A stretch of DNA of 64,000 bases from Notolepis coatsorum. Taxonomy: Eukaryota > Chordata > Actinopteri > Aulopiformes > Paralepididae. The position numbers and the translations under genes are program-made. Location of the stretch: NCBI GenBank assembly GCA_963971535.1, contig OZ020586.1, forward strand, positions 78,596,412 through 78,660,411, in the 5' to 3' direction. How positions within the stretch are numbered: position 1 is the first letter of the stretch; every line of letters begins with the position of its first letter. Below are positions 7,078-60,797 of the stretch, piece after piece. Below the pieces are notes generated by a model. The model searched no databases. It was given only the letters and a program-made list of their open reading frames with translations, and was not told the DNA's origin.

Positions 7078-8476
7078 TTGCTTTCAATCTGGCTCCCAGG
7101 CCGAGCAGCAGCCAAGCTACCAGGGCACGTAGCAACATGGCTCCCAGGCCAAGCAGCAGCCAAGCTACCATCCCAGCTCCCAGGCGCAGCAGCCAAGCTA
7201 CCAGCCCAGCTCCCAGACAGAGCAGCAGCCAAGCTACCAGGCCAGCCCCCAGGCCAAGAAGCAGCCGAGCTACCAGCTCAGCTCCCAGGCCGAGCAGCAC
7301 CCAGGCTACCAGCTCAGCTCCCAGGCCGAGCAGCAACAGGGATACCAGCCCAACTCCCAGGCCGAGCAGCAAGAGGGATACCAGCCCAGCTCCCAGACGC
7401 AGCAGCTAAGCTACCAGCCCAGCCCCCAGGCCAAGCAACATCCAAGCTACCAGCCCAGCCCCCAGGCCAAGCAACATCCAAGCTACCAGCCCAGCTCCCA
7501 GGCCAAGCAGCAGCCAAGCTACCATCCCAGCTCCCAGACCGAGGAGCAGCCAAGCTACCAGCCCAGCTCCCAGGCCAAGCAGCAGCCAAGCTACCAGGGC
7601 ACGCAGCAACAGGGCAACCAGCCAAGCTTTCAATCTGGCTCCCAGGCCGAGCAGCAACCAAGCTACCAGGGCACGGAGCAACATGACTCCCAGGCCAAGC
7701 AACAACCAAGCTACCAGCCCAGCTCCCTGGCCAAAGCAGCAGCTAAGCTACCAGCCCGGCTCCCAGGCCAAGCAGCAGCCCAGCTACCATCCCAGCTCCC
7801 AGGCCAAGCAGCAGCCAAGCTACCATCCCAGCTCCCAGGCCAAGCAGCAGCCCAGCTACCATCCCAGCTCCGAGGTGCAGCAGCCAAGCTACCAGCCCGG
7901 CTACCAGGCCAAGCGGCAACCAAGCTACCAGCCCAGCTCCCAGGCCGAGCAGCAGCCAAGCTACCAGCCCAGCTCCCAGGCCGAGCAGCAGCCAAGCTAC
8001 CAGCCCAGCTCCCTGGCCAAGCAGCAGCCAAGCTACCAGCCCAGCTCCCAGGCCAATCGGCAGCCAAGCTACCAGGGCACGCAGCAACAGGGCAACCAGC
8101 CAAGCTTTCAATCTGGCTCCCAGGCCGAGCAGCAGCCAAGCTACCAGGGCACGTAGCAACATGGCTCCCAGGCCAAGCAGCAGCCAAGCTACCATCCCAG
8201 CTCCCAGGCGCAGCAGCCAAGCTACCAGCCCAGCTCCCAGACAGAGCAGCAGCCAAGCTACCAGCCCAGCTCCCAGGCCAAGCAACACCCAAGCAGCAGC
8301 CCAGCTCCCAGACCAAGCAGCAGCCAAGCTACCAGGGCACGCAGCAGCTAAGCTACCAGCCCAGCTCCCAAGCCAAGCAGCAGCCAAGCTACCAGGGCAC
8401 GCAGCAACAGGTCAACCAGCCAAGCTTTCAATCTGGCTCCCAGGCCGAGCAGCAGCCAAGCTACCAGGGCACGTAG
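7078..8476 (+). repeat. Degenerate 36-bp coding-type tandem array
   Basis: Tandem copies of a 36-bp unit (protein form QPSSQAKQQPSY) are mixed with a second block, GTQQQGNQPSFQSGSQAEQQ. In the SYQ frame this part is broken. TAG replaces CAG at 7,130, 8,154 and 8,474, each time in the same GGCACG(T)AGCAACATGG context, and indels near 7,735 and 8,290 shift the frame. The unit is low in stops in all six frames, so long ORFs appear on both strands; these are artefacts. It looks like a decayed or non-coding extension of the coding exon that follows. Confidence 0.75.
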
Positions 8477-9351
8477 CAACATGGCTCCCAGGCCAAGCAG
8501 CAGCCAAGCTACCATCCCAGCTCCCAGGCGCAGCAGCCAAGCTACCATCCCAGCTCCCAGGCGCAGCAGCCAAGCTACCAGCCCAGCTCCCAGGCCAAGC
8601 AGCAGCCAAGCTACCAGCCCAGTTCCCAGACCGAGGAGCAGCCAAGCTCCCAGACGCAGCAGCCAAGCTACCAGCCCAGCTCCCAGGCCGAGCAGCAGCC
8701 AAGCTACCAGGGCATGCAGCAACATGGCTCCCAGGCCGAGCATCAGCCCAGCTACCAGCCCAGCTCCCAGACCGAGCAGCACCCAAGCTACCAGGCCGAG
8801 CAGCAGCAGCCAAGCTACAAGGGCACGCAGCAACATGGCTCCCATGCCGAGCAGCAGGAGAGCTACCAGCTCAGCTCCCAGGCCAAGCAACACCCAAGCT
8901 ACCAGCCCAGCTCCCAGGCCAAGCAGCAGCCAAGCTACCAGGTCACGCAGCAACATGGCTCCCAGGCCGAGCAGCAGGCAAGCTACCAGCCCAGCTCCCA
9001 GGCCAAGCAACACCCAAGCTACCTGGGCACACAGCAACAAGGCTCTCAGGCTAAGGAGCAGACGCAGTCTAGCTACCAGCATCCAGGTTCCTCCAGCTTC
9101 TATGGTTCTTATCCCGTATCTACCAAGACTGGAGATGCAGCTAGTAACAAGGATGCAGATGGGTGAGTTTATCTTGGCCTTCACTCTGGAATGTCTAGGG
9201 TCACTGCTAAGATTAATGGTACAATGACTGCCTTAGTTGCTAGAGTTATGTCTCATTCCCTCTTTGACTCCACAGCTATGGAAGGCCTAAAGGAGTTGGC
9301 AATGATTCTCACCAGCCAGGGCATGGATATGACTCCACCAGCAGGGACTAA
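8477..9351 (+). CDS. 3' end of a Q/S/P-rich repeat protein gene, two exons
   Basis: I do not recognise the protein. Exon 1 is open from the TAG at 8,474 to 9,162 (GATGG, donor gtgagttt). It codes about 17 imperfect 12-residue repeats of the type QPSSQAKQQPSY, then a non-repeat tail, SSFYGSYPVSTKTG. The intron is 113 bp with acceptor tttgactccacag. Exon 2 (9,276-9,351) continues in frame as GYGRPKGVGNDSHQPGHGY and ends at TAA (9,349-9,351). A further small intron may lie in the 3' UTR (gtgtgt at 9,361; acceptor tctcatttcag before 9,462). 'aataaaatgg' near 9,520 is a likely poly(A) signal. No start codon, signal peptide or upstream exon is certain; ATG 8,714 is only an internal methionine. The composition suggests a structural or low-complexity protein, but that is inference. 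Confidence 0.55.
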
Positions 9352-13216: not shown

Positions 13217-13290
13217 CAATCAGGGTAGGTGGACCAATCAGGCTACAGGAGGGTAGGTGGACCAATCAGGCTACAGGAGGGTAGGCAGAT
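13217..13290 (+). repeat. Short direct repeat, ~31 bp x 2-3
   Basis: 'gggtaggtggaccaatcagg' then 'ctacagga' occurs twice in tandem plus a partial third copy. It is repeated in unit 2 at ~16,195-16,268. Confidence 0.8.
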
Positions 13291-14352: not shown

Positions 14353-15715
14353 GGCACAGCTTGGGCTGTTCTTCCTGTAACGTCACGTCATCCATCTTAA
14401 AGGGGTATTCAGCTACACTGCAGCTGTTCTTCCTGTAACGTCATCCATCTTAAAGGGGTATTCAGCTACACTGCAGCTGTTCTTCCTGTACCGTCATCCA
14501 TCTTAAAGGGGTATTCAGCTACACTGCAGCTGTTCTTCCTGTAACGTCATCCATCTTAAAGGGGTATTCAGCTACACTGCAGCTGTTCTTCCTGTAACGT
14601 CATCCATCTTAAAGGGGTATTCAGCTACACTGCAGCTGTTCTTCCTGTAACGTCATCCATCTTAAAGGGGTATTCAGCTACACTGCAGCTGTTCTTCCTG
14701 TAACGTCATCCATCTTAAAGGGGTATTCAGCTACACTGCAGCTGTTCTTCCTGTAACGTCATCCATCTTAAAGGGGTATTCAGCTACACTGCAGCTGTTC
14801 TTCCTGTAACGTCATCCATCTTAAAGGGGTATTCAGCTACACTGCAGCTGTTCTTCCTGTAACGTCATCCATCTTAAAGGGGTATTCAGCTACACTGCAG
14901 CTGTTCTTCCTGTAACGTCATCCATTTTAAAGGGGTATTCAGCTACACTGCAGCTGTTCTTCCTGTAACGTCATCCATCTTAAAGGGGTATTCAGCTACA
15001 CTGCAGCTGTTCTTCCTGTAACGTCATCCATTTTAAAGGGGTATTCAGCTACACTGCAGCTGTTCTTCCTGTACCGTCATCCATCTTAAAGGGGTATTCA
15101 GCTACACTGCAGCTGTTCTTCCTGTAACGTCATCCATCTTAAAGGGGTATTCAGCTACACTGCAGCTGTTCTTCCTGTAACGTCATCCATCTTAAAGGGG
15201 TATTCAGCTACACTGCAGCTGTTCTTCCTGTAACGTCATCCATTTTAAAGGGGTATTCAGCTACACTGCAGCTGTTCTTCCTGTAACGTCATCCATCTTA
15301 AAGGGGTATTCAGCTACACTGCAGCTGTTCTTCCTGTAACGTCATCCATTTTAAAGGGGTATTCAGCTACACTGCAGCTGTTCTTCCTGTAACGTCATCC
15401 ATCTTAAAGGGGTATTCAGCTACACTGCAGCTGTTCTTCCTGTAACGTCATCCATCTTAAAGGGGTATTCAGCTACACTGCAGCTGTTCTTCCTGTAACG
15501 TCATCCATTTTAAAGGGGTATTCAGCTACACTGCAGCTGTTCTTCCTGTAACGTCATCCATCTTAAAGGGGTATTCAGCTACACTGCAGCTGTTCTTCCT
15601 GTAACGTCATCCATTTTAAAGGGGTATTCAGCTACACTACAGCTGTTCTTCCTGTAACGTCACGTCATCTATCTTAAAGGGGTATTCAGCTACACTACAG
15701 CCTGCCATCTTGAAA
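14353..15715 (+). repeat. 53-bp satellite array 1 (~25 copies)
   Basis: Head-to-tail units run 'cagctgttcttcctgtaacg' then 'tcatccatcttaaaggggta' then 'ttcagctacactg'. Units vary mainly at catcttaa/cattttaa and gtaacg/gtaccg. The first and last units carry an extra 'tcacg', so array ends are distinguishable from the middle. Confidence 0.95.
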
Positions 15716-17330: not shown

Positions 17331-18427
17331 GGCACAGCTTGGGCTGTTCTTCCTGTAACGTCACGTCATCCATCTTAAAGGGGTATTCAGCTACACTGCA
17401 GCTGTTCTTCCTGTAACGTCATCCATCTTAAAGGGGTATTCAGCTACACTGCAGCTGTTCTTCCTGTACCGTCATCCATCTTAAAGGGGTATTCAGCTAC
17501 ACTGCAGCTGTTCTTCCTGTAACGTCATCCATCTTAAAGGGGTATTCAGCTACACTGCAGCTGTTCTTCCTGTAACGTCATCCATCTTAAAGGGGTATTC
17601 AGCTACACTGCAGCTGTTCTTCCTGTAACGTCATCCATCTTAAAGGGGTATTCAGCTACACTGCAGCTGTTCTTCCTGTAACGTCATCCATCTTAAAGGG
17701 GTATTCAGCTACACTGCAGCTGTTCTTCCTGTAACGTCATCCATCTTAAAGGGGTATTCAGCTACACTGCAGCTGTTCTTCCTGTACCGTCATCCATCTT
17801 AAAGGGGTATTCAGCTACACTGCAGCTGTTCTTCCTGTAACGTCATCCATCTTAAAGGGGTATTCAGCTACACTGCAGCTGTTCTTCCTGTAACGTCATC
17901 CATCTTAAAGGGGTATTCAGCTACACTGCAGCTGTTCTTCCTGTAACGTCATCCATTTTAAAGGGGTATTCAGCTACACTGCAGCTGTTCTTCCTGTAAC
18001 GTCATCCATCTTAAAGGGGTATTCAGCTACACTGCAGCTGTTCTTCCTGTAACGTCATCCATTTTAAAGGGGTATTCAGCTACACTGCAGCTGTTCTTCC
18101 TGTAACGTCATCCATCTTAAAGGGGTATTCAGCTACACTGCAGCTGTTCTTCCTGTAACGTCATCCATCTTAAAGGGGTATTCAGCTACACTGCAGCTGT
18201 TCTTCCTGTAACGTCATCCATTTTAAAGGGGTATTCAGCTACACTGCAGCTGTTCTTCCTGTAACGTCATCCATCTTAAAGGGGTATTCAGCTACACTGC
18301 AGCTGTTCTTCCTGTAACGTCATCCATTTTAAAGGGGTATTCAGCTACACTACAGCTGTTCTTCCTGTAACGTCACGTCATCTATCTTAAAGGGGTATTC
18401 AGCTACACTACAGCCTGCCATCTTGAA
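17331..18427 (+). repeat. 53-bp satellite array 2 (~20 copies)
   Basis: Same unit as 14,353-15,715, including the distinctive first and last copies. Copy-number loss relative to array 1 accounts for the length difference between the two duplication units. Confidence 0.95.
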
Positions 18428-44300: not shown

Positions 44301-45906
44301 TATTTATACAGATCAAATCGACATCTGTCAGTCATCGACCATAACAGAAATGTTAATATTCGTTATCGGTATCGGCCGAAATCGGTGCATCCCTAATTCA
44401 TAACATTGAATCGTGGACATCTTGGTAGGAAAACAACAGGTGATTTTAATGACATAGCAGGTGATTCTCATTAAACGACAACGTGGTCAATGAGCTGTGG
44501 CGCTGCAGCGTATTGTATGAAGAAACGCGTCAAGAGAACACTATGGCTATGTTCACACTTACCGCTCAATTCTCATTTATTGCTCAGATCTGACTTTTTT
44601 TGTTTGGCTGTTCACATTCTATGACCTACTGATGGCAGCTGACTCCGGACTATTATCCATCCTCATCCTCCTCGATCTAAGCGCCGCATTTGACACCATA
44701 TCTCACTCCACCCTCCTTAACCGACTAGCCTCCATTGGAATCTCCCACACATCCCTAGACTGGTTCCACTCATATCTCTCTGGCCGTACTCAGTTCATTC
44801 AGCTAAAATCATTCACATCCCATCCATCCCCCCTCTCCTCCGGTGTTCCCCAGGGCTCTGTCCTTGGCCCTATCCTCTTCATTATCTACCTCCTCCCACT
44901 CGGTCGGATTCTCCGTAAACACAGCATCAATTTCCACTGTTACGCAGACAACACCCAGCTCTATGTTTCCTCCAAACCCACTTCCACCCTCCCTCCCTCT
45001 TCCCTCTGTGCCTGTCTACAGGAAATCAAATCCTGGTTCACCTCAAATTTCCTGAAATTTGGCAAAACAGAGGTAGTCCTCATTGGCTCCAAGTCCACAC
45101 TCACCAAGCACCCCAGTTTCACCCTCACCATAGACAACTCCTTGGTTTCCCTTTCCCCCCAGGTCAAGAGTCTGGGTGTCGTCCTCGACAGCACCCTATC
45201 ATTCCATTCCCACATTAATAACATCATCCGGTCCGCCTACTTCCACCTTCGCAACATCAACCGCCTCCGCCCTTCACTCACTCCCAACAGCGCCGCAATC
45301 CTGGTCCACGCCCTCGTCACTTCCCGCTTAGATTACTGCAACTCCCTTCTCTTTGGTCTTCCCCACAAACTCCTCCATAAGCTCCAACTGGTCCAGAACG
45401 CTGCTGCCCGTATAATCACCAGAACCCCTGTCATCAGTCACATCACCCCCGTCCTACGCCAACTACACTGGCTTCCCATTAAACTCTGCATAGTCTACAA
45501 GATCCTCCTCCATACATACAAGGCCATACACAACCTCGCCCCTCCATACCTGTCCGACCTTCTTCATATTAACATTCCCACCCGGTCCCTCAGGTCTGCC
45601 TCCTCCATCAACCTGACCATCCCCCCAGCCCGTCTGTCCACCATGGGGTCAAGAGCCTTCAGCTGCTCTGCCCCCCGCCTCTGGAACTCCCTCCCCCCCG
45701 ACATCAGGAACATTGACTCCATCATTTCTTTTAAAACCCACCTCAAAACCCACCTTTTTAGGCAGGCGTATGTCTGATTTTAATTTTTGTCTGTTTTTAT
45801 ATATTTTAATTTTTATTTTAATGAACTGTGATTATGAATTTAACTGTTTTTAAATTGTTGTACGGCGACCTTGTGTGCCTTGAAAGGCGCCTTATAAATA
45901 GAATGC

Positions 45907-45979
<73 letters not shown>

Positions 45980-48355
45980 TTTTTTAAATGTGGCCAATAT
46001 CAGATTCCAGTGTGAACTGGTCACACTCCTGGACTGACCCGCATGCTCAAATTAACAATAAAGATGATGGACATAAAAGAATGGTTGCACGAGTGTTCAG
46101 ACTGAGGTCACATTGCAAAAGATCAGACCTGTATCTGATTCAGGACCACATTATGAAAGTGGCGCAAATCAGAATTGAAAAGATCAGATTTGATGTGATT
46201 TGTGCTGTTCACACAAAAACAGATCTGTCTGTACTGTTCACAGACTGTTTTTATATACAGACTGGTAAAACCTGTGTCTCCATGGTGTGGTGTGGATTAA
46301 AACCTTTTTGTTTCAAGACCCTGTTTGCTGCCTGTCTGAAGCTTCCCATTTCGCTCTGAACCAGAAGTATTTTTTTTTCTCTTTTTTTTTATCCACTTTT
46401 TCTCCTTTTTCTCCCATCCCAATTTCATGTTTCCAATTCTCCCCTCCCGTCTTGAACGTTGCTCGACTATGCCCCCCACTGGTCGGTTGTAGGGAGGATA
46501 GAAGCCTTGCATCACGTGTCTCCGGTACATGAGGAGGCAGCCTGTCACATCTTTTCACCTGCCAGCGCGGACTCTCAATGGCGAGGTGTAACGCATGGGA
46601 GGCTCACGCTGCCCCCGCTACTTCCCGTCTCTGCTGTGCAGGCGTCCCCCAACCGACCTGTAGGAGTCGCTGTCCACAACGTCCAAATTACCACCCATCG
46701 ACTTCCACCCGCTGGCTCTGCCAATTGAGCCAGTATGACGGCCGGCCCAAGCCGGAGGCAATGCTGACACCCGGATTCGAGACCGGAGTCTCTTGCATTG
46801 GTGACGAGCGCAATCTCCGCTGCGCCACCCAGCCGCCCAACTGGCAAGTATTCTATAACACTTAATGTCCAAAGAATCCAAACTATCCCTTTAACAACCT
46901 GGGAGTAGAAGGGGTTAACTTACTTGATACCAGGAATCCCAGTGGACTTGTGTCTGCTGGCCAACGCTGGAGACTGGGATGAAAAACCACACGTTTAGAA
47001 ATGAATGAGGTACATTACAAAAACGCAGAGTTACGTCTACAACTGTATATTTCAACGTTATAATTACATCACCTGGAATAAAAGATGATTCACGTGAAGA
47101 CAACGTCTATTTTAGAAATCAGTAAATGTGTGAAGTTCTATCATTACCTTCCCATTGCTCCTGGACAGTGGCCCCTCCTCTAGAACGTTCTCCTCAATGG
47201 GAGGCACTGGGTATGGAAACACTGAGGGGGGAAAAAAAGGGGGGGGGGAACATTAGGTAGGTGGTGTCTAGATCCAATCACCCGGAGGGACCTTGGATGT
47301 GGGTGGGGTGACAGTGGCTCAGGAGGTAGAGTGGTCGCCTGGTAATCTGAAAGTTCCCGGTTCGATTCCTCCAAGTGTCCTTGGGCAAGACGCTTAACCC
47401 TTAACTTCCCAACATTATGGGAAATAGCTTTTTTTTTTTTTTTTTTTTTACTTTATTTTTTAGCGTTTATCGCTTTTCTGGTCAAGCATGACCGACAGTT
47501 GTAGGGTGAAACGGGAGAGAGAGCAGGGGGAGACATTCGGCAAATGACGGCGAGTCCGGGAATCGAACTCGGAGTCAACCAGATCCGTGACGCAGCACGG
47601 AGTCCCGCGACGCAGCGCGGTAACATGGTGTGCTACTGGAGCACTCCGAGGGAAATAGCTTTCTACTGAACACACATAATGTTGACCTGTTCCTTTAAGT
47701 TCAGCAACGTGCATGGTTCAACTCTGCCGTCAGTGTGTAATAAAAATGGATTGGTGTAAATAAACCTATCCATCACCTCAACTCCAAACTCCAACCTCCA
47801 AGGTTAGCTTTTTCTGGATGGTGTGATCTAGACTGTAGAGACGACCCATTAGGTATCACCGCTATACCCTACATCCCTGCATGTGGCTGTCCTCGACTAA
47901 AGATATTCTTAGTTGACAAATTATCATGGGACTTTGGCGACGAATCGATTAGTTGATTTAAATGACGATTTTCAACAATGCTGATATTCAGAGAGCAGGG
48001 CAACTACCGATAAAGTTGCTGAACTTTGCTGAACACATCAGACAAGAGTCAGACAAGAAGATAGATACCAGTTTCCTCTCTGTGCGTTCTCTCTCTCTCT
48101 CTCTCTCTCTCTCAATCTGTATGTGTATGTGCGTGTGTGAATGTACCACTGTGTCTGTTCCTAGAAGTGTGTGTGTGTGTGTACGTACCAGTGTGTCTGT
48201 TCCTAGAAGTGTGTGGGTGTGTGTGTACGTACGTACGTACCACTGTGTCTGTTCCTAGAAGTGTGTGTGTGTGTGTACGTACCAGTGTGTCTGTTCCTAG
48301 AAGTGTGTGGGTGTGTGTGTGTACGTACGTACGTACCACTGTGTCTGTTCCTAGC

Positions 48356-48422
<67 letters not shown>

Positions 48423-49134
48423 CAGTGTCTGTTCCTAGAAGTGTGTGTGTGTGTGTACGTACGTACCACTGTGTCTGTTCCTAGCAGTTTGTGTGTGTGT
48501 GTGTGAATGTACCAGTGTCTGTTCCTAGAAGTGTGTGTGTGTGTGTGTGTGTACGTACGTACCACTGTGTCTGTTCCTAGAAGTGTGTATGTGTGTGTGT
48601 GTGGGTGTGTGTGTGTGTGTGTGTGTGGGTGTGTGCGTGGGTGTGTGTGTGTGTGGGTGTGTGTGTGGGTGTGTGTGTAGATAGATTGATAGATGTGTGT
48701 ACGTACCACTTGAGTCGAGTGAAAACAGATGACTGACTTGCTTTTAAAAGCGAAAGTAAATAAAGACATAAGGTACAACTGAAGGCTAAATATTGGGTCC
48801 TATGGTCCACGAAAGGAGATGGATGCATTTTTATTAAATAAAAACACGAGGCAGGTACAGATAATGCTCTGTGTGTTTGGAGACATTTGTATTGCTGCGC
48901 ACAGTGAGATGAGGTGCGCTTGATTTCTATCACAGCTGTTCTGTTCTGTATCAGTGTGTTATGAGGAGTTTCATTCTGTGTCACGCTGCTCCGTGTTTGT
49001 TTGTTATTCCAGCACATGTGCGCGGTGTCAGGAATTAAGTAAAATACTGACGCTTTTTTGCGACAATAGCTAAAGATATCTACCGATCTGTCTGTTCCTA
49101 GCAGTGTGTGTGTGTACCACTGTGTCTATTTCTA

Positions 49135-49183
<49 letters not shown>

Positions 49184-49549
49184 CTACCACTGTGTCTGTT
49201 CCTAGCAGTGTGTGTGTACGTACCACTGTGTCTGTTCCTAGCAGTGTGTGTGTACGTACCACTGTGTCTGTTCCTAGCAGTGTGTGTGTACGTACCACTG
49301 TGTCTGTTCCTAGCAGTGTGTGTGTACGTACCACTGTGTCTGTTCCTAGCAGTGTGTGTGTACGTACCACTGTGTCTGTTCCTAGCAGTGTGTGTGTACG
49401 TACCACTGTGTCTGTTCCTAGCAGTGTGTGTGTACGTACCACTGTGTCTGTTCCTAGCAGTGTGTGTGTGTGTTGGGCTCAGGGCTCCTGTGTCTGTGTT
49501 CCTCAGGCTGGTATGAAGAGCTGAGTCAGAGTTTGTCCTGTATAGAGAG

Positions 49550-49602
<53 letters not shown>

Positions 49603-52600
49603 TTTTTTAGAAGGGAGATAACACCTAACACACACACATAGCCAGAAGAAAACAGCGGTATGTACGTACACACACACACGCACGCATCTTCCCCTCATGT
49701 CTCTCTTCCACGATGCCAGTTACTGTACAACGGGCTGGAGGTGGTTGAGATCGTTCATGAACAGGCACTGAGCTGCAGCATTTGCTCACATTCTCCTCTC
49801 TTGTGAAACGGAACAAACACCGTGTGACATGCCATCTCTACGTGCACAGGCCGTGTAATGGGGACCTGGGCATTTTGTTCACCTGTTGAGGGCTGTAATG
49901 GGCGGCTGGAGCAGCGGGGACTTGTTGAGCTGCGGGGAGACACTGCACCAGTTTCTATCAGGGAGACAAGCAATGTTCACGTTTAATAGAACATCATGTC
50001 AACATGCAATTACCTTTTGAACACAAAGGATATCGCTAGAAAACCAGAACATCGCCTAAATCAAATCAAATTTATTTGTAAATCAAATCAATTATTTGTA
50101 AGGCCCGACAACACACGTTAGTGTCCCCATGGGCCAGACACGTCTTATTTAAACAAGTCAAGAAGAAACATCACAATAAATCAAGAACAAAACAAAACAC
50201 CATGAAATCCAAGATAACATTTTTTAATTAATGAATGAATGCAACACTCCGAGACATAACCCACGCGAAGGTAAGGAAAAACTCACTAAAAACCTAGCAA
50301 TAGGAAAAAAGCACCACAGGCAATGTGGAGGGGAGAAACCTTAGAAGGGCCGTTAAAGGGGGGATCTCCCTTCTTAGATGTCGGTGATAGTAGTGTTGCT
50401 ATAAAACAGGCGAAACAGTTGGTAAGCATGTATATAAATGTGTAATGAAACACAAATAAGTACATGCAATAGCAACTTGGGTACATAAGAATTTTTTGGA
50501 AGATTGAAAATAGAGCTGATGATGAGCCTAACCACCTCCAGGTCACAATCGTGGATTAATTTGTTCCCGCCAGTCCCGGTGAGCATTAGGGTTGGGTACA
50601 GTTCACATTTGAACCGATACCGGTACCAGTAACAGTTCCTGGAATTCGGCATCGGTACCAAGCGGTACCTTTTTCCGATACTTAACTCTCTATAATAACA
50701 ATTGTTTTTATTTCAGTTGTAAAAAAAAACAAGTCCAAACTTTAAAAAAAAATCAATATTGTTATTTATTTAGAACATATTTATTGTTGTAACACACCAC
50801 ACAAAATACAAATAAATGTATTATGTTTTTAAATGTTTAAACATCTACATTATCTGGCCATCCTCAGTAAATATGATCAAACTCCTCTGACCTTGTCTGG
50901 TCTTTCCAAAAACTGCCCCGGATCTAAAAACGCTTTACAACTCATGCCTCACCCGTTCACTCAGGCAGTCACACACCGACGGCGGAGGCGACCATGCAAG
51001 GTGCCAACGTGCGCATCGGGAGCAGTTAGGGGCTTAAGTGTCGCTGTGTTGCTCAAGGACACTTCAACACACTGCCCGGGAGAAGCCGGAATCTAACCAA
51101 GAACATTCAGATTACTGCTCTACCCGAGTCACTGTCCCCCTATATCAGGTCTTTACTTTATTATATTCATATTTTACTATACACACATACATATTGATAA
51201 CTGTTCATTATGAACAAAATGTCAGAAATGATTGGAAATGGTATTTTCTGCAAAGTGATCTGGCTCACTGTGTAATCCTGCTTGATGAAATACATACACA
51301 GTCAGCACACTGATTGACAGCTCACAAAAAGACACACAACTCACAACTAGGGCTGTCCCCATTAACATTATTGGGCTTCTAAGCTTCGGTAGTAATTAAT
51401 AGTGAATAATCTAAGCTTCAGTAGTAATTCATAGTGAATAATCTAAAACATGGATTGAAGCTTTGAAGCGTGGGTGTCAGTGTGGTGTTACCTTTTCCAG
51501 CTGGGGTCCGGAGGAGACAGGTGGACAGAGTGATAAGGAGAGTTGGTCTGGGAGACGGTTAATTAAGGCCTTAAAGAACAAGTGCTATGGAAAACATGTT
51601 TTTCAATCACCTTGCATTATTTAAAAGGAGCACGCCAGAATTATGGGAGATTTATTAGCTTAGCGCAAATGAATGGATGCAGATATGGACCACTAGCCTA
51701 GTTTGAAACTCCGGGAGAGGTGTTTTTGGCCAACAGCTAGGCTAGCCGGTCCGTATCCACTTCCATTAATTTGTGCTAAGCTAGGCTAGCTTGCAGCCGG
51801 ATAGCTTTCTACTGAACGCACAGAGAGGGAATTGGTATCTTATCTTCTTGTCCGACTCTGGAGAAGATGGTAAGCACATTTCCCATAATGTTGCTGTGTT
51901 CCAGAACAGGCATGTCCATGTGAAGTTACCCAACGTGGTATAATCGTGAGTATCTCTAAAGCCCCTTGAAAGACCTACTTAACCACAAGCTCCAAAACAT
52001 CCCTCAAAATGAGCTTTACCTACTTACTACTAGGTCAGCCCCATGTACAAATATATATAGCTAACCTACAGTCTACTCTGTGCAGCGTGCATGTAATCCA
52101 TACTGTACCACAGATTGCCCAAGTCTAAGTCTGTTTGTGACTCTCGCTATAGGGTCTTCTACTCTCCGTCTGACAAAGAGCCCGAGCTGATCTTTGGGAT
52201 CTCATTCACACACAAGTCCTAATGGAAAGGTTTGCATGTGTGAAGGGGATTACAGGCCCAATTGGTGATCTGTAACAACTGGGTAGCCTCAGCACCACCA
52301 CTAAGTGGGGATGTGATCAGGTCAATAATGGTGCGAATTGTCTTAAAAAAGACATGGGTCCATATTCGTAACGCCTCTCAAAGCGGTCTGATCTGGAGCT
52401 TCAATCGGTTAGCCTGAATAAGGTCAAAAGGTCAAAACGTTTTCCTGGTCACTGATCCCAGATCAGCACTGCTAATCTGGGAAGCTTTATGAATAATGAA
52501 GGGGCCAGAATGACATGACATCCCGATATCGTTTGTGTGACAGTGGGTTTGACAGAGAGACCAAGTTCAAGTTTAGACCAGAGGCTTCCTTGTGATATGA

Positions 52601-55600
52601 ACTGTTTAAAAAGGGACACTTCACCAAAAAACAATGCTGATTTATTTTGCACATAATCTCACACACATCCAAAAACGATTTTGCACAGTCTTGTACACAT
52701 TCTTTAAGTTTGACAGTTATTGAGAGTAAATTAGTTTGAATATGGCCACCCGTGTTGTCATCGAGGACATTGAATCATTGTGTTAATTACAGCTCTGAAA
52801 TAATAAGGTTAGGTTAGGTTTACTTTATTTGTTCAAGGGGGACAGTGTACATTAATAAAACATTTTACAATGTAAATGTAGCAGTCGCTATAAGACATTG
52901 GTCATTTTACATCTACATTATTTAATTGAGCTATAATTAACACAACACAAGGATTCAATGTCCCCGATGACATCACTGGTGGCCATATTCAAACTAATTT
53001 ACTCTCAATAACTGTCAAACTAAATGAATGTGTGCAAAACGTTTTAGAGTTTTTAGACGTGTGTGAGATTACGTACAAAATAAATCAGCATTGTCTTTTG
53101 GTGAAGTGCCCCTTTAACCTCAGACAATATTGGATTTGAATCTTAATCACAGATTTAGCTGGTTACCATGCTGTTAACATGCTCAGTGGTTCCCATACCC
53201 ATACTGTATCCCTCACTACTTTGAATTAAACAATGAACTTTCATTAAAATGGAAAATAAAGCATATTCCTATTTTTGTCAATCAATGAATCTTTTTTTTT
53301 AAAGGATACATGTCGTCTGATTGGTCGGATGGGTAAGCAGACCCGCCCATCTCCTTGAATCCGCTCTCCCATTGGATGATGCCTTGCAGAGCATCCTGCG
53401 TCTGGGCCGCAGGTGGGCTGGCCCTAAGCGAGACAGGAAACACCAAATATGACCATGAGAAAAGGAAGTTAAAGCATATTATATAATATAAAAGCTAAAT
53501 TCTATTTCTTGTAATGTTTCGATATTGACAGTTTTAAATTGACAAAATAAACATTCTAAAATTGAATGCATTTGATTTTAGTGACTGATATCACACTATA
53601 ACACTGCAACATCAAATCCACACTCCTACACAGAGAGTTGGAAGACTTTCCCCCCGAGTTCCACTGTCAAACTTCTCTGCCCAAACAGGAAGAAAGTAAG
53701 TGCCTGGGAGTGTGACGTACAGGCGTAGAGACACAGCCCTGCCTGGGAGTGTGACGTACAGGCGTAGAGACACAGCCCTGCCTGGGAGTGTGACGTACAG
53801 GCGTAGAGACACAGCCCTGCCTGGGAGTGTGACGTACAGGCGTAGAGAGGCAGCCCTGCCTGGGAGTGTGACGTACAGGCGTAGAGAGGCAGCCCTGCCT
53901 GGGAGTGTGACGTACAGGCGTAGAGACACAGCCCTGCCTGGGAGTGTGACGTACAGGCGTAGAGACACAGCCCTGCCTGGGAGTGTGAAGTACAGGCGTA
54001 GAGACACAGCCCTGCCTGGGAGTGTGACGTACAGGCGTAGAGACACAGCCCTGCCTGGGAGTGTGACGTACAGGCGTAGAGACACAGCCCTGCCTGAGAG
54101 TGTGACGTACAGGCGTAGAGACACGGCCCTGCCTGGGAGTGTGACGTACAGGCGTAGAGACACAGCCCTGCCTGGGAGTGTGACGTACAGGCGTAGAGAC
54201 ACAGCCCTGCCTGGGAGTGTGACGTACAGGCGTAGAGACACAGCCCTGCCTGGGAGTGTGACGTACAGGCGTAGAGACACAGCCCTGCCTGGGAGTGTGA
54301 CGTACAGGCGTAGAGACACAGCCCTGCCTGGGACTGTGCAGGGAATCAACTGCGGCCCAACCTGTTCCCTAGCAGCACAATTCCATTGAAACCATCCATA
54401 GAAAAGAATACTGTATCATGCACGTCTCAGGACAGTGAACCTTCATCATTACCCTCTCTGGGGATCCGATGTCATCACCTCATTTCCTCTGAAGCTCTCA
54501 GTATTGATGACTGCTAACCAGGGGTGCAGTCGTAATATCAGAACTGCCTGGACGCCACGTGCACGCACGCGCATACATGTTCCCTCGCGTGTGCACAGAC
54601 CAGCTCAAGCAAACCCCCCACAGGGCTTGTATTTTGGTCTTGCACTTCTCTTTCTTTGTTATGCTATGCAAAGACTAGGTGATAAGTGCCGGGTACTTGG
54701 CGCACGGCGCGACAGTAGAGTGAAAGTTGTGACCGCATTTTCGTGTGCGCGGCTGCGCGCGCGTGCACATCCGTGCGCGCACTTCTGCTCAGCGAACTGC
54801 TAGGATGGCGTGGTACCACCACTGCATCACTGCTGCTAACGGGTAAATTACTTTTGGAAAAGTGGTCAAAGAATGAAATACTGTTTCCTGGGTTGTTGGG
54901 TGGGTCTGTATTCATACAGGGTTCCTGTTGGTTTCAACAAGTTAAATCTAAGACTTTTTAAGACCACTTTGTAGGGCTGTACCGAATGTCATTTTTTTAA
55001 CATTCGAAGCTTCGATTGAAGTATTCGAACAAAGCTTCGAATGTCTATAAAAAAACAAATTACTTCAAAAAATTATTATTATTATATATATATATTTTTT
55101 AAACTAAATCCTCAATTTGAATAAAGTGATTAATCTGATTAAATGAGTCTTTTTCTTTTATTAAATCAACTTTCTTTAATGAATATAACTCATCAGTTTC
55201 GTCAACATAAATAATCCAATAAGGGCACGGTTGGTATGAAAGTGATGGTGACGTCTTATAGTATAATATTATAATATTAGTGTAGCCTAATCTTTAACGG
55301 CAACTGTGAAGAAAACCCCCATTGGTTTAAACAGATTGAATAGACACATTTTTTTTATTATTATTATTTTTTATTAAAAATTCAAATGTTGATTTAGATT
55401 TCGAATGTCAACATTATGATCGAAGCTTCGAAGCATTCGGTACAGCCCTACCACTTTGAATATAATATTGAATACGTATTGCACGGCCATACTCACAAAA
55501 AGGTATGAAGGAAAATTACTTTGAAAAAAGTAATTCCATATGAATTGTTGGGGGGGGGGGGGGGGGCTGATTCTATTACCTTACTGCTTACTTTGCCGCC

Positions 55601-60773: not shown

Positions 60774-60797
60774 CTGAGGACAAACACAGGGAATGTG

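What the first reader, a model, noticed from the sequence alone, without database searches (positions are those of the whole stretch)
49136..49537. A minisatellite multiplies the crtc2 splice donor in frame-preserving 36-bp steps
The exon with the regulatory [11 protein letters not shown] site runs straight into a 36-bp tandem array. Each unit carries CAGTG|gtacgtac on the sense strand. Thirty-six is divisible by three and the crtc2 frame has no stop across the units (repeating [12 protein letters not shown]), so using any of the ~7 donors would give the same downstream frame with 12-residue steps next to a kinase/14-3-3 site. Array length could therefore vary both splicing and protein length between alleles.
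Basis: partly seen in the sequence, partly recalled or inferred. Interest (0 to 1): 0.8.

Follow-up and report, generated by a model that had tools for sequence, protein, structure and literature searches.

The report
Minisatellite copying a fish splice donor
In a fish genome, the end of one exon of the metabolic regulator gene crtc2, with its splice site, is repeated seven times in identical 36-base steps, so the protein could be lengthened in 12-residue steps; similar repeats are known in a few human genes, and no RNA data were available to show that the extra sites are used.

Summary
On the minus strand, crtc2 exon 49537-49440 ([11 protein letters not shown]) runs into seven identical 36-bp units, each with GTG|GTACGT (+1 G at 49439, 49403, 49367, 49331, 49295, 49259, 49223). 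All seven are phase 1, stop-free and in frame with the next exon, 47221-47148.

New here: donor 1 is the ancestral exon end. Esox and Dallia end this exon RNRHS|VFPYP, Diretmus RNRHS|VFLYP, so each unit copies exon end + donor + CA tract. None of 120 listed CRTC proteins carries unit words twice. The extra donors are therefore a lineage-specific, probably young duplication.

Most likely donor 1 is mainly used, with minor +12-residue forms. Human precedents point that way: IFI6 (three mRNAs through repeat-unit donors) and ABCA7 (next-unit donor about 2%, independent of VNTR length); CBS has a VNTR spanning a donor. So this is a new member of a known kind. A degenerate inverted unit copy upstream (49630-49677) beats all shuffles, but modelling shows it favours no donor. 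Donor use and allele variation could not be tested.

The parts
49440..49537 (-). crtc2 exon with [11 protein letters not shown]...ARNRHS, ending at donor 1 (98 nt, ends in phase 1)
   Evidence: exon end matches Esox, Dallia and Diretmus proteins
49206..49457 (-). Seven identical 36-bp units CTAGGAACAGACACAGTG|GTACGTACACACACACTG
49438..49439 (-). Donor 1 (GT), ancestral exon end
49222..49403 (-). Donors 2-7, +1 G at 49403, 49367, 49331, 49295, 49259, 49223; all phase 1, no stop
49136..49205 (-). Eighth copy with a weaker donor (GTG|GTAGAT, +1 at 49187), followed by a CA tract (49138-49181)
49081..49135 (-). Two decayed copies; the exon-3 frame stops at about 49134
48122..48646 (-). Second, diverged array in the same intron: nine copies of the core, donors out of frame or behind stops
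49630..49677 (-). Degenerate inverted copy of the unit in the upstream intron; 49662-49677 is exactly complementary to +1..+16 of the array donors
49883..49954 (-). Preceding crtc2 exon (...PPITALNR)
47148..47221 (-). Following crtc2 exon ([12 protein letters not shown]...), needs a phase-1 donor; 74 nt

Best explanation
The array is a tandem amplification of the 3' end of a crtc2 coding exon together with its splice donor. The exon end CTAGGAACAGACACAGTG lies between a CA tract in the exon and a CA tract at the start of the intron; slippage or unequal exchange between those tracts duplicated the piece between them (inferred from anatomy). Donor 1 is the ancestral site (shown by peptide conservation in relatives). 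Donors 2-7 are sequence-identical, phase-matched candidates that would insert ([12 protein letters not shown])1-6 between the kinase/14-3-3 site and the [12 protein letters not shown] block (shown as potential only). Most likely the spliceosome uses donor 1 for most transcripts and leaks in frame to later copies (inferred from human precedents). The array is most likely tolerated rather than a selected switch.
For: Identical exon-end peptide RNRHS|V in Esox and Dallia, and in Diretmus. Spacing SDSALHT to the PVP block: 23-45 residues in 118 of the 119 measured of 120 proteins (one is 4); donor 1 gives 27, donor 2 gives 39, donors 3-7 give 51-99. No earlier usable donor in the exon: its one GT scores -1.5. 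Joined frame open with donor 1 (783 aa) and with donor 7 (855 aa). Donor score 6.23 inside the range 1.5-9.9 of the eight other donors. Strong genome matches to a two-unit probe only here (12 of 18 matches; the other six at 79-86%). Precedents: IFI6, three mRNAs through repeat-unit donors, 130-aa form predominant; ABCA7, next-unit donor 2 +/- 1%.
Against: All seven donors are identical in sequence, so nothing in the 9-nt site favours donor 1. In the folding model the array donors are costlier to open (7.3-8.4 kcal/mol) than most of the gene's other donors (1.4-7.4), and the upstream inverted copy pairs with unit 1, which if anything would count against donor 1. No transcript was seen. The nucleotide sequence of the exon end in relatives was not available, only proteins. 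That the predominant IFI6 form is the first-donor form is my inference, and ABCA7's 2% is lowered by decay of frame-shifted transcripts.
Confidence: 0.62

Rival explanations
1. Working length ladder: all seven donors compete about equally (or the last wins), so the fish makes a mixture of CRTC2 forms, and array-length alleles change the spacing next to the kinase site.
For: Seven donors identical from -18 to +18, same phase, no stop. Donor 2 would still fall inside the spacing range of relatives (39 against 23-45). Other fish CRTC2 proteins already differ by about 9 residues at this junction. Opening costs are nearly equal for all seven.
Against: No protein with extra units among 120 or in a search with a seven-unit query. 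Donors 3-7 exceed every spacing measured. In ABCA7 use of the next-unit donor was about 2% and did not change with VNTR length.
Confidence: 0.2
2. Inert intronic repeat: only donor 1 is ever used; the array is a neutral minisatellite that happened to capture the exon end.
For: The second array shows the same unit growing and decaying deep in the intron; the annotated relatives need only donor 1.
Against: The extra donors are exact copies with the same matrix score, and in IFI6 and ABCA7 downstream units are used to some extent.
Confidence: 0.13
3. The array disturbs splicing in another way: its length promotes skipping of a neighbouring exon, or the inverted copies that flank the exon loop it out.
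For: In ABCA7 skipping of the next exon rose with VNTR length. An inverted copy of the unit sits upstream of the exon with its complement downstream.
Against: Skipping the 98-nt exon or the following 74-nt exon would shift the frame. The folded exon-plus-array is ordinary (z -0.67, 24 of 100 shuffles fold at least as well).
Confidence: 0.04
4. Assembly artefact: the number of units is wrong or the array was expanded by the assembler.
For: Perfect identity of seven units; reads were not available.
Against: The seven units span only about 250 bp inside a 209-Mb contig, with distinct flanks and a distinct eighth copy.
Confidence: 0.03

Closest known systems
Human IFI6 (6-16, G1P3) minisatellite with multiple splice donors (Turri, Cuin and Porter 1995)
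   Same: A minisatellite at an exon end supplies several donors; downstream repeat units are used, giving three mRNAs and isoforms (passage in PMC4526556; title of the 1995 paper in reference lists).
   Different: Interferon-induced human gene; unit of 12 bp (recalled). Use of several donors was reported there; here it is only potential, with 36-bp steps next to a CRTC2 regulatory site. The 1995 paper was not held.
ABCA7 intron 18 VNTR (25 bp)
   Same: The first GT of the array is the exon's own donor, and the next unit can serve as donor (PMC5954066, passages and section 21).
   Different: 25 bp breaks the frame; 36 bp here keeps it. There the array lies in the intron only; here the unit includes 18 bases of exon end. 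There VNTR length changed skipping of the next exon, not donor use.
CBS 31-bp VNTR, c.1444_1467+7(16_21)
   Same: By its name the unit takes in 24 exon bases and 7 intron bases, so it spans a donor, as here; copy number varies between people (PMC2630376, passages).
   Different: 31 is not a multiple of 3; which donors are used was not in the passages I saw.
Introns born from tandem arrays (Zhuo and others 2007)
   Same: Splice sites carried inside tandem repeats; frequent alternative splicing (recalled; seen only as a reference in PMC2812944).
   Different: There both intron ends lie in repeats and the intron is new; here the intron is shared with relatives and its 3' end (47222) lies outside the array.

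Membership tests
VNTR-multiplied splice donor (IFI6/ABCA7/CBS type) | Tandem array overlaps the donor of a real coding exon | tested here: met
   Exon end conserved in relatives; array begins at that end
VNTR-multiplied splice donor (IFI6/ABCA7/CBS type) | Downstream units carry donor-like sites as good as the first | tested here: met
   Seven sites with identical score 6.23
VNTR-multiplied splice donor (IFI6/ABCA7/CBS type) | Transcripts use more than one unit's donor | not testable with these tools
   No RNA data; no listed protein carries extra units
VNTR-multiplied splice donor (IFI6/ABCA7/CBS type) | Copy number varies between individuals | not testable with these tools
   One assembly; the two-unit probe found strong matches at this locus only
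CRTC2 (TORC) gene | TORC middle domain (PF12885) | tested here: met
   E 1.3e-20, 74.4 bits against cut-off 27
CRTC2 (TORC) gene | N-terminal TORC domain (PF12884) | not tested
   Only exons were mapped: relatives' residues from about 59 on are found at 60776 and below; the first ~58 residues of the Esox query were not found in the window
Intron gained from a tandem array (Zhuo type) | Both intron boundaries lie in repeat copies | tested here: not met
   The 3' boundary at 47222 lies outside the arrays
Docking/selector RNA pairing (Dscam-like choice) | One docking site pairs with one of several selectors and so frees or blocks single sites | tested here: inconclusive
   A 16-nt complement exists and pairs with unit 1 in the model, but opening costs hardly differ between donors with or without it

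The most novel reading that the evidence does not exclude
A natural length ladder with a built-in switch: donors 1-7 all fire at useful rates, alleles differ in copy number, and the inverted unit copy in the upstream intron pairs with the first donor's intronic side (probability 0.97 at most of its bases in the model) to hand splicing to downstream copies, so that array length sets the distance between CRTC2's kinase/14-3-3 site and its next conserved block.
Probability: 0.08. Interest if true: 0.72.

Novelty: new member of a known kind. Interest (0 to 1): 0.42.

Why it matters
It is an unusually clean natural experiment on donor choice: seven donors identical from -18 to +18, evenly spaced, all in the same frame, next to a well-studied regulatory site. 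Junction counts would show directly how position alone decides between equal splice donors, without the decay of frame-shifted transcripts that blurs the ABCA7 case. It also suggests a simple way for an exon to grow in fixed steps when its donor sits between two CA tracts.

Tried and rejected
RNA structure as a selector: the 350-nt exon plus array folds no better than shuffles (z -0.67; 24 of 100 shuffles at least as good). Opening costs are 7.3-8.4 kcal/mol for the seven donors, 6.8-7.6 with the upstream copy masked, against 1.4-7.4 for the gene's eight other mapped donors; structure singles out none.

Dispersed-repeat origin: strong matches to the two-unit probe lie only at this locus; the six others (C29, C46; 79-86%) were read over 1 kb each and look like other CA/TG-rich arrays. 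The C29 array shares a GGAACAGACACA-like stretch with the unit, so this is not fully closed; the exact count of the core did not complete.

Reading the junction from a retrocopy: a 164-aa query gave 4 matches in the genome, all exons of this locus. It found no CRTC paralogue either, so its sensitivity is limited and the absence of a retrocopy is weak evidence.

Frame as evidence of selection: rejected, since 1 period in 3 keeps frame and the exon part is in register by origin.

Alternative exon end before the array: the one GT in the exon scores -1.5, and the five GC sites have poor contexts.

Slip: the line '0 with score >= array donor' is an index error of my script; one search gives 117 of 4163 GT on the minus strand, 14 of them in 47222-49537. 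The donor matrix is recalled, not fitted here.

No search was made for a paper on a crtc2 minisatellite; the ten paper searches were about repeats, splice donors, CRTC2 Ser171 and CA repeats.

Full report
WHAT IS THERE. On the minus strand the window holds a fish crtc2-type gene. Nine exons between 51547 and 40456, joined in a script, give one open frame of 783 aa if the first array donor is used. A 468-aa part of it hits Pfam TORC_M (PF12885, E 1.3e-20). The protein search scored the 7984 candidates sharing most words and gave 834 with E <= 0.001, of which the best 120 are listed; most of these are named fish CRTC2, a few CRTC1, CRTC3, hypothetical or otherwise. All 120 contain SDSALH. More crtc2 exons are found by tblastn up to 60776 and down to 24531; the first ~58 residues of the Esox query were not found in the window. 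The genome is 3.42 Gb and the window lies at C7:78596412-78660411. The closest listed cytochrome b proteins are from Scopelarchoides, Scopelosaurus, Gigantura, Benthalbella and Scopelarchus (top 7 of 120 listed, 91-93%; the rest 86-89%). Scopelarchoides danae and Gigantura indica are Aulopiformes; for the others this is recalled. The source is therefore probably an aulopiform fish.

THE ARRAY. The exon 49537-49440 ends in CTAGGAACAGACACAGTG|GTACGTACACACACACTG, and this 36-mer stands seven times without a difference. The donors' +1 G are at 49439, 49403, 49367, 49331, 49295, 49259 and 49223. With a recalled human-like matrix each scores 6.23, inside the range of the gene's eight other mapped donors (1.5-9.9); 117 of 4163 GT on the minus strand score at least as well. 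All seven are phase 1 and stop-free from the exon start, and the next exon at 47221 needs phase 1. With donor 7 the joined frame is 855 aa and open. An eighth copy has GTG|GTAGAT (score 3.2) and a CA tract, two more are decayed, and the exon-3 frame stops at 49134. A second array of the same core (nine copies, within 48122-48646) follows in the same intron with its good donors behind stops.

WHERE THE UNIT CAME FROM. Protein relatives show which donor is old. Esox and Dallia have [17 protein letters not shown], Diretmus SPTHTFRNRHSVFLYPAPPIEEN, and the window through donor 1 [25 protein letters not shown]. RNRHS itself is in only these 3 of 120 proteins; a looser exon-end pattern, [RQ][NST]R[HR]x before the FPYP-type block, is in 18 of 120; others have diverged there or carry about 9 more residues. 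Hence the exon end is inherited, and each unit copies exon end plus donor plus CA tract. The spacing from SDSALHT to the PVP block could be measured in 119 of 120 proteins: 23-45 residues in 118, and 4 in one; donor 1 gives 27, donor 2 gives 39, donors 3-7 give 51-99. A search with a seven-unit query found 18 proteins: 17 are among the 120, and the eighteenth (P0121) is an unrelated repeat protein. None of these 121 proteins contains two unit words. The exon end is flanked by CA tracts on both sides, so duplication by slippage or unequal exchange between them is the simplest route (inference). Strong genome matches to a two-unit probe lie only here: 12 of 18 matches; the six others on C29 and C46 are 79-86% and look like other CA/TG arrays. 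The tool warns that such counts are lower bounds. The 16-mer GTGTGTGTGTACGTAC, the complement of the unit's intronic part, occurs 241 times in the genome, 14 of them at this locus; the same letters read backwards, the tool's control, occur 1677 times.

INVERTED COPY. The intron upstream of the exon holds a degenerate inverted copy of the unit (49630-49677) with 16 nt exactly complementary to +1..+16 of the array donors. Its local alignment score is 37, reached by 0 of 1000 dinucleotide shuffles (maximum 32); the best of 178 minus-strand and 179 plus-strand pieces of the same length elsewhere in the window scored 24 and 25. In a folding model it pairs with unit 1 (13.95 of 16 expected pairs; probability 0.97 at most bases, but 0.17 and 0.37 at the donor's G and T). 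Yet the cost of opening the donor is 8.0 kcal/mol at donor 1 and 7.3-8.4 at the others, and 6.8-7.6 with the inverted copy masked, and the exon-plus-array fold is ordinary (z -0.67). I do not claim that it chooses a donor.

HOW IT MOST LIKELY WORKS. Donor 1 is expected to do most of the work, with in-frame leakage to later units. This is inferred. In IFI6, downstream repeat units serve as donors to give three mRNAs, with the 130-aa form predominant (PMC4526556, passages; that this is the first-donor form is my inference; the 1995 paper was not held). In ABCA7 the first GT of a 25-bp VNTR is the exon 18 donor; splicing to the next unit made up 2 +/- 1% and did not change with VNTR length, while skipping of the next exon did; the frame-shifted form is subject to decay, so 2% is a low estimate (PMC5954066, passages and section 21). 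CBS has a 31-bp VNTR, c.1444_1467+7 (PMC2630376, passages). Against a firm prediction: the seven sites are identical, and SRSF1 favours intron-proximal while hnRNP A1 favours intron-distal donors (PMC5585400, passages), with factor levels here unknown. Each unit contains TAGG and CA repeats, which I recall as hnRNP A1- and hnRNP L-type motifs; not tested. Skipping this exon (98 nt) or the next (74 nt) would shift the frame.

FUNCTIONAL SETTING. Phosphorylation of CRTC2 at Ser171 makes it leave the nucleus (PMC7493656, passages). That [11 protein letters not shown] is the Ser171 region and binds 14-3-3 is recalled. Fish CRTC2 proteins already differ by about 9 residues (GQSDGEGRR) at this junction, so a 12-residue insert is plausible in length; whether that difference is alternative splicing or a gene difference was not tested.

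VERDICT. Observation confirmed; interpretation partly supported. The kind, a minisatellite that multiplies a splice donor, is known in human genes; this is a new, unusually regular, in-frame member. Use of the extra donors and allele variation are open and directly testable.

Noticed in passing
49630-49677: Degenerate inverted copy of the array unit in the intron upstream of the exon; beats 1000 shuffles, origin and role unexplained.
   Followed up: partly
48122-48646: Second, diverged array of the same core in the same intron, with further donor-like sites behind stops.
   Followed up: partly
7140-9023: 36-bp repeat reading as SQAKQQPSYQPS-like units, with an open frame of 447 aa at 7133-8476 on the plus strand.
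   Followed up: no
14385-15701 and 17363-18414: Two arrays of the same 53-bp unit, 24.8 and 19.8 copies, about 3 kb apart; a 28-bp repeat at 13222 and 16200 is also shared, as if the stretch were duplicated.
   Followed up: no
53701-54338: 39-bp array of 16.4 copies inside a crtc2 intron, open in several frames on both strands.
   Followed up: no
44521-45777: Plus-strand open frame of 418 aa that by eye reads like a LINE reverse transcriptase remnant, inside a crtc2 intron (no family search made).
   Followed up: no
49470-49537: The exon itself contains AGGAACACAGACACAGG, similar to the unit core AGGAACAGACACAGTGG; possibly an older internal duplication or chance.
   Followed up: no
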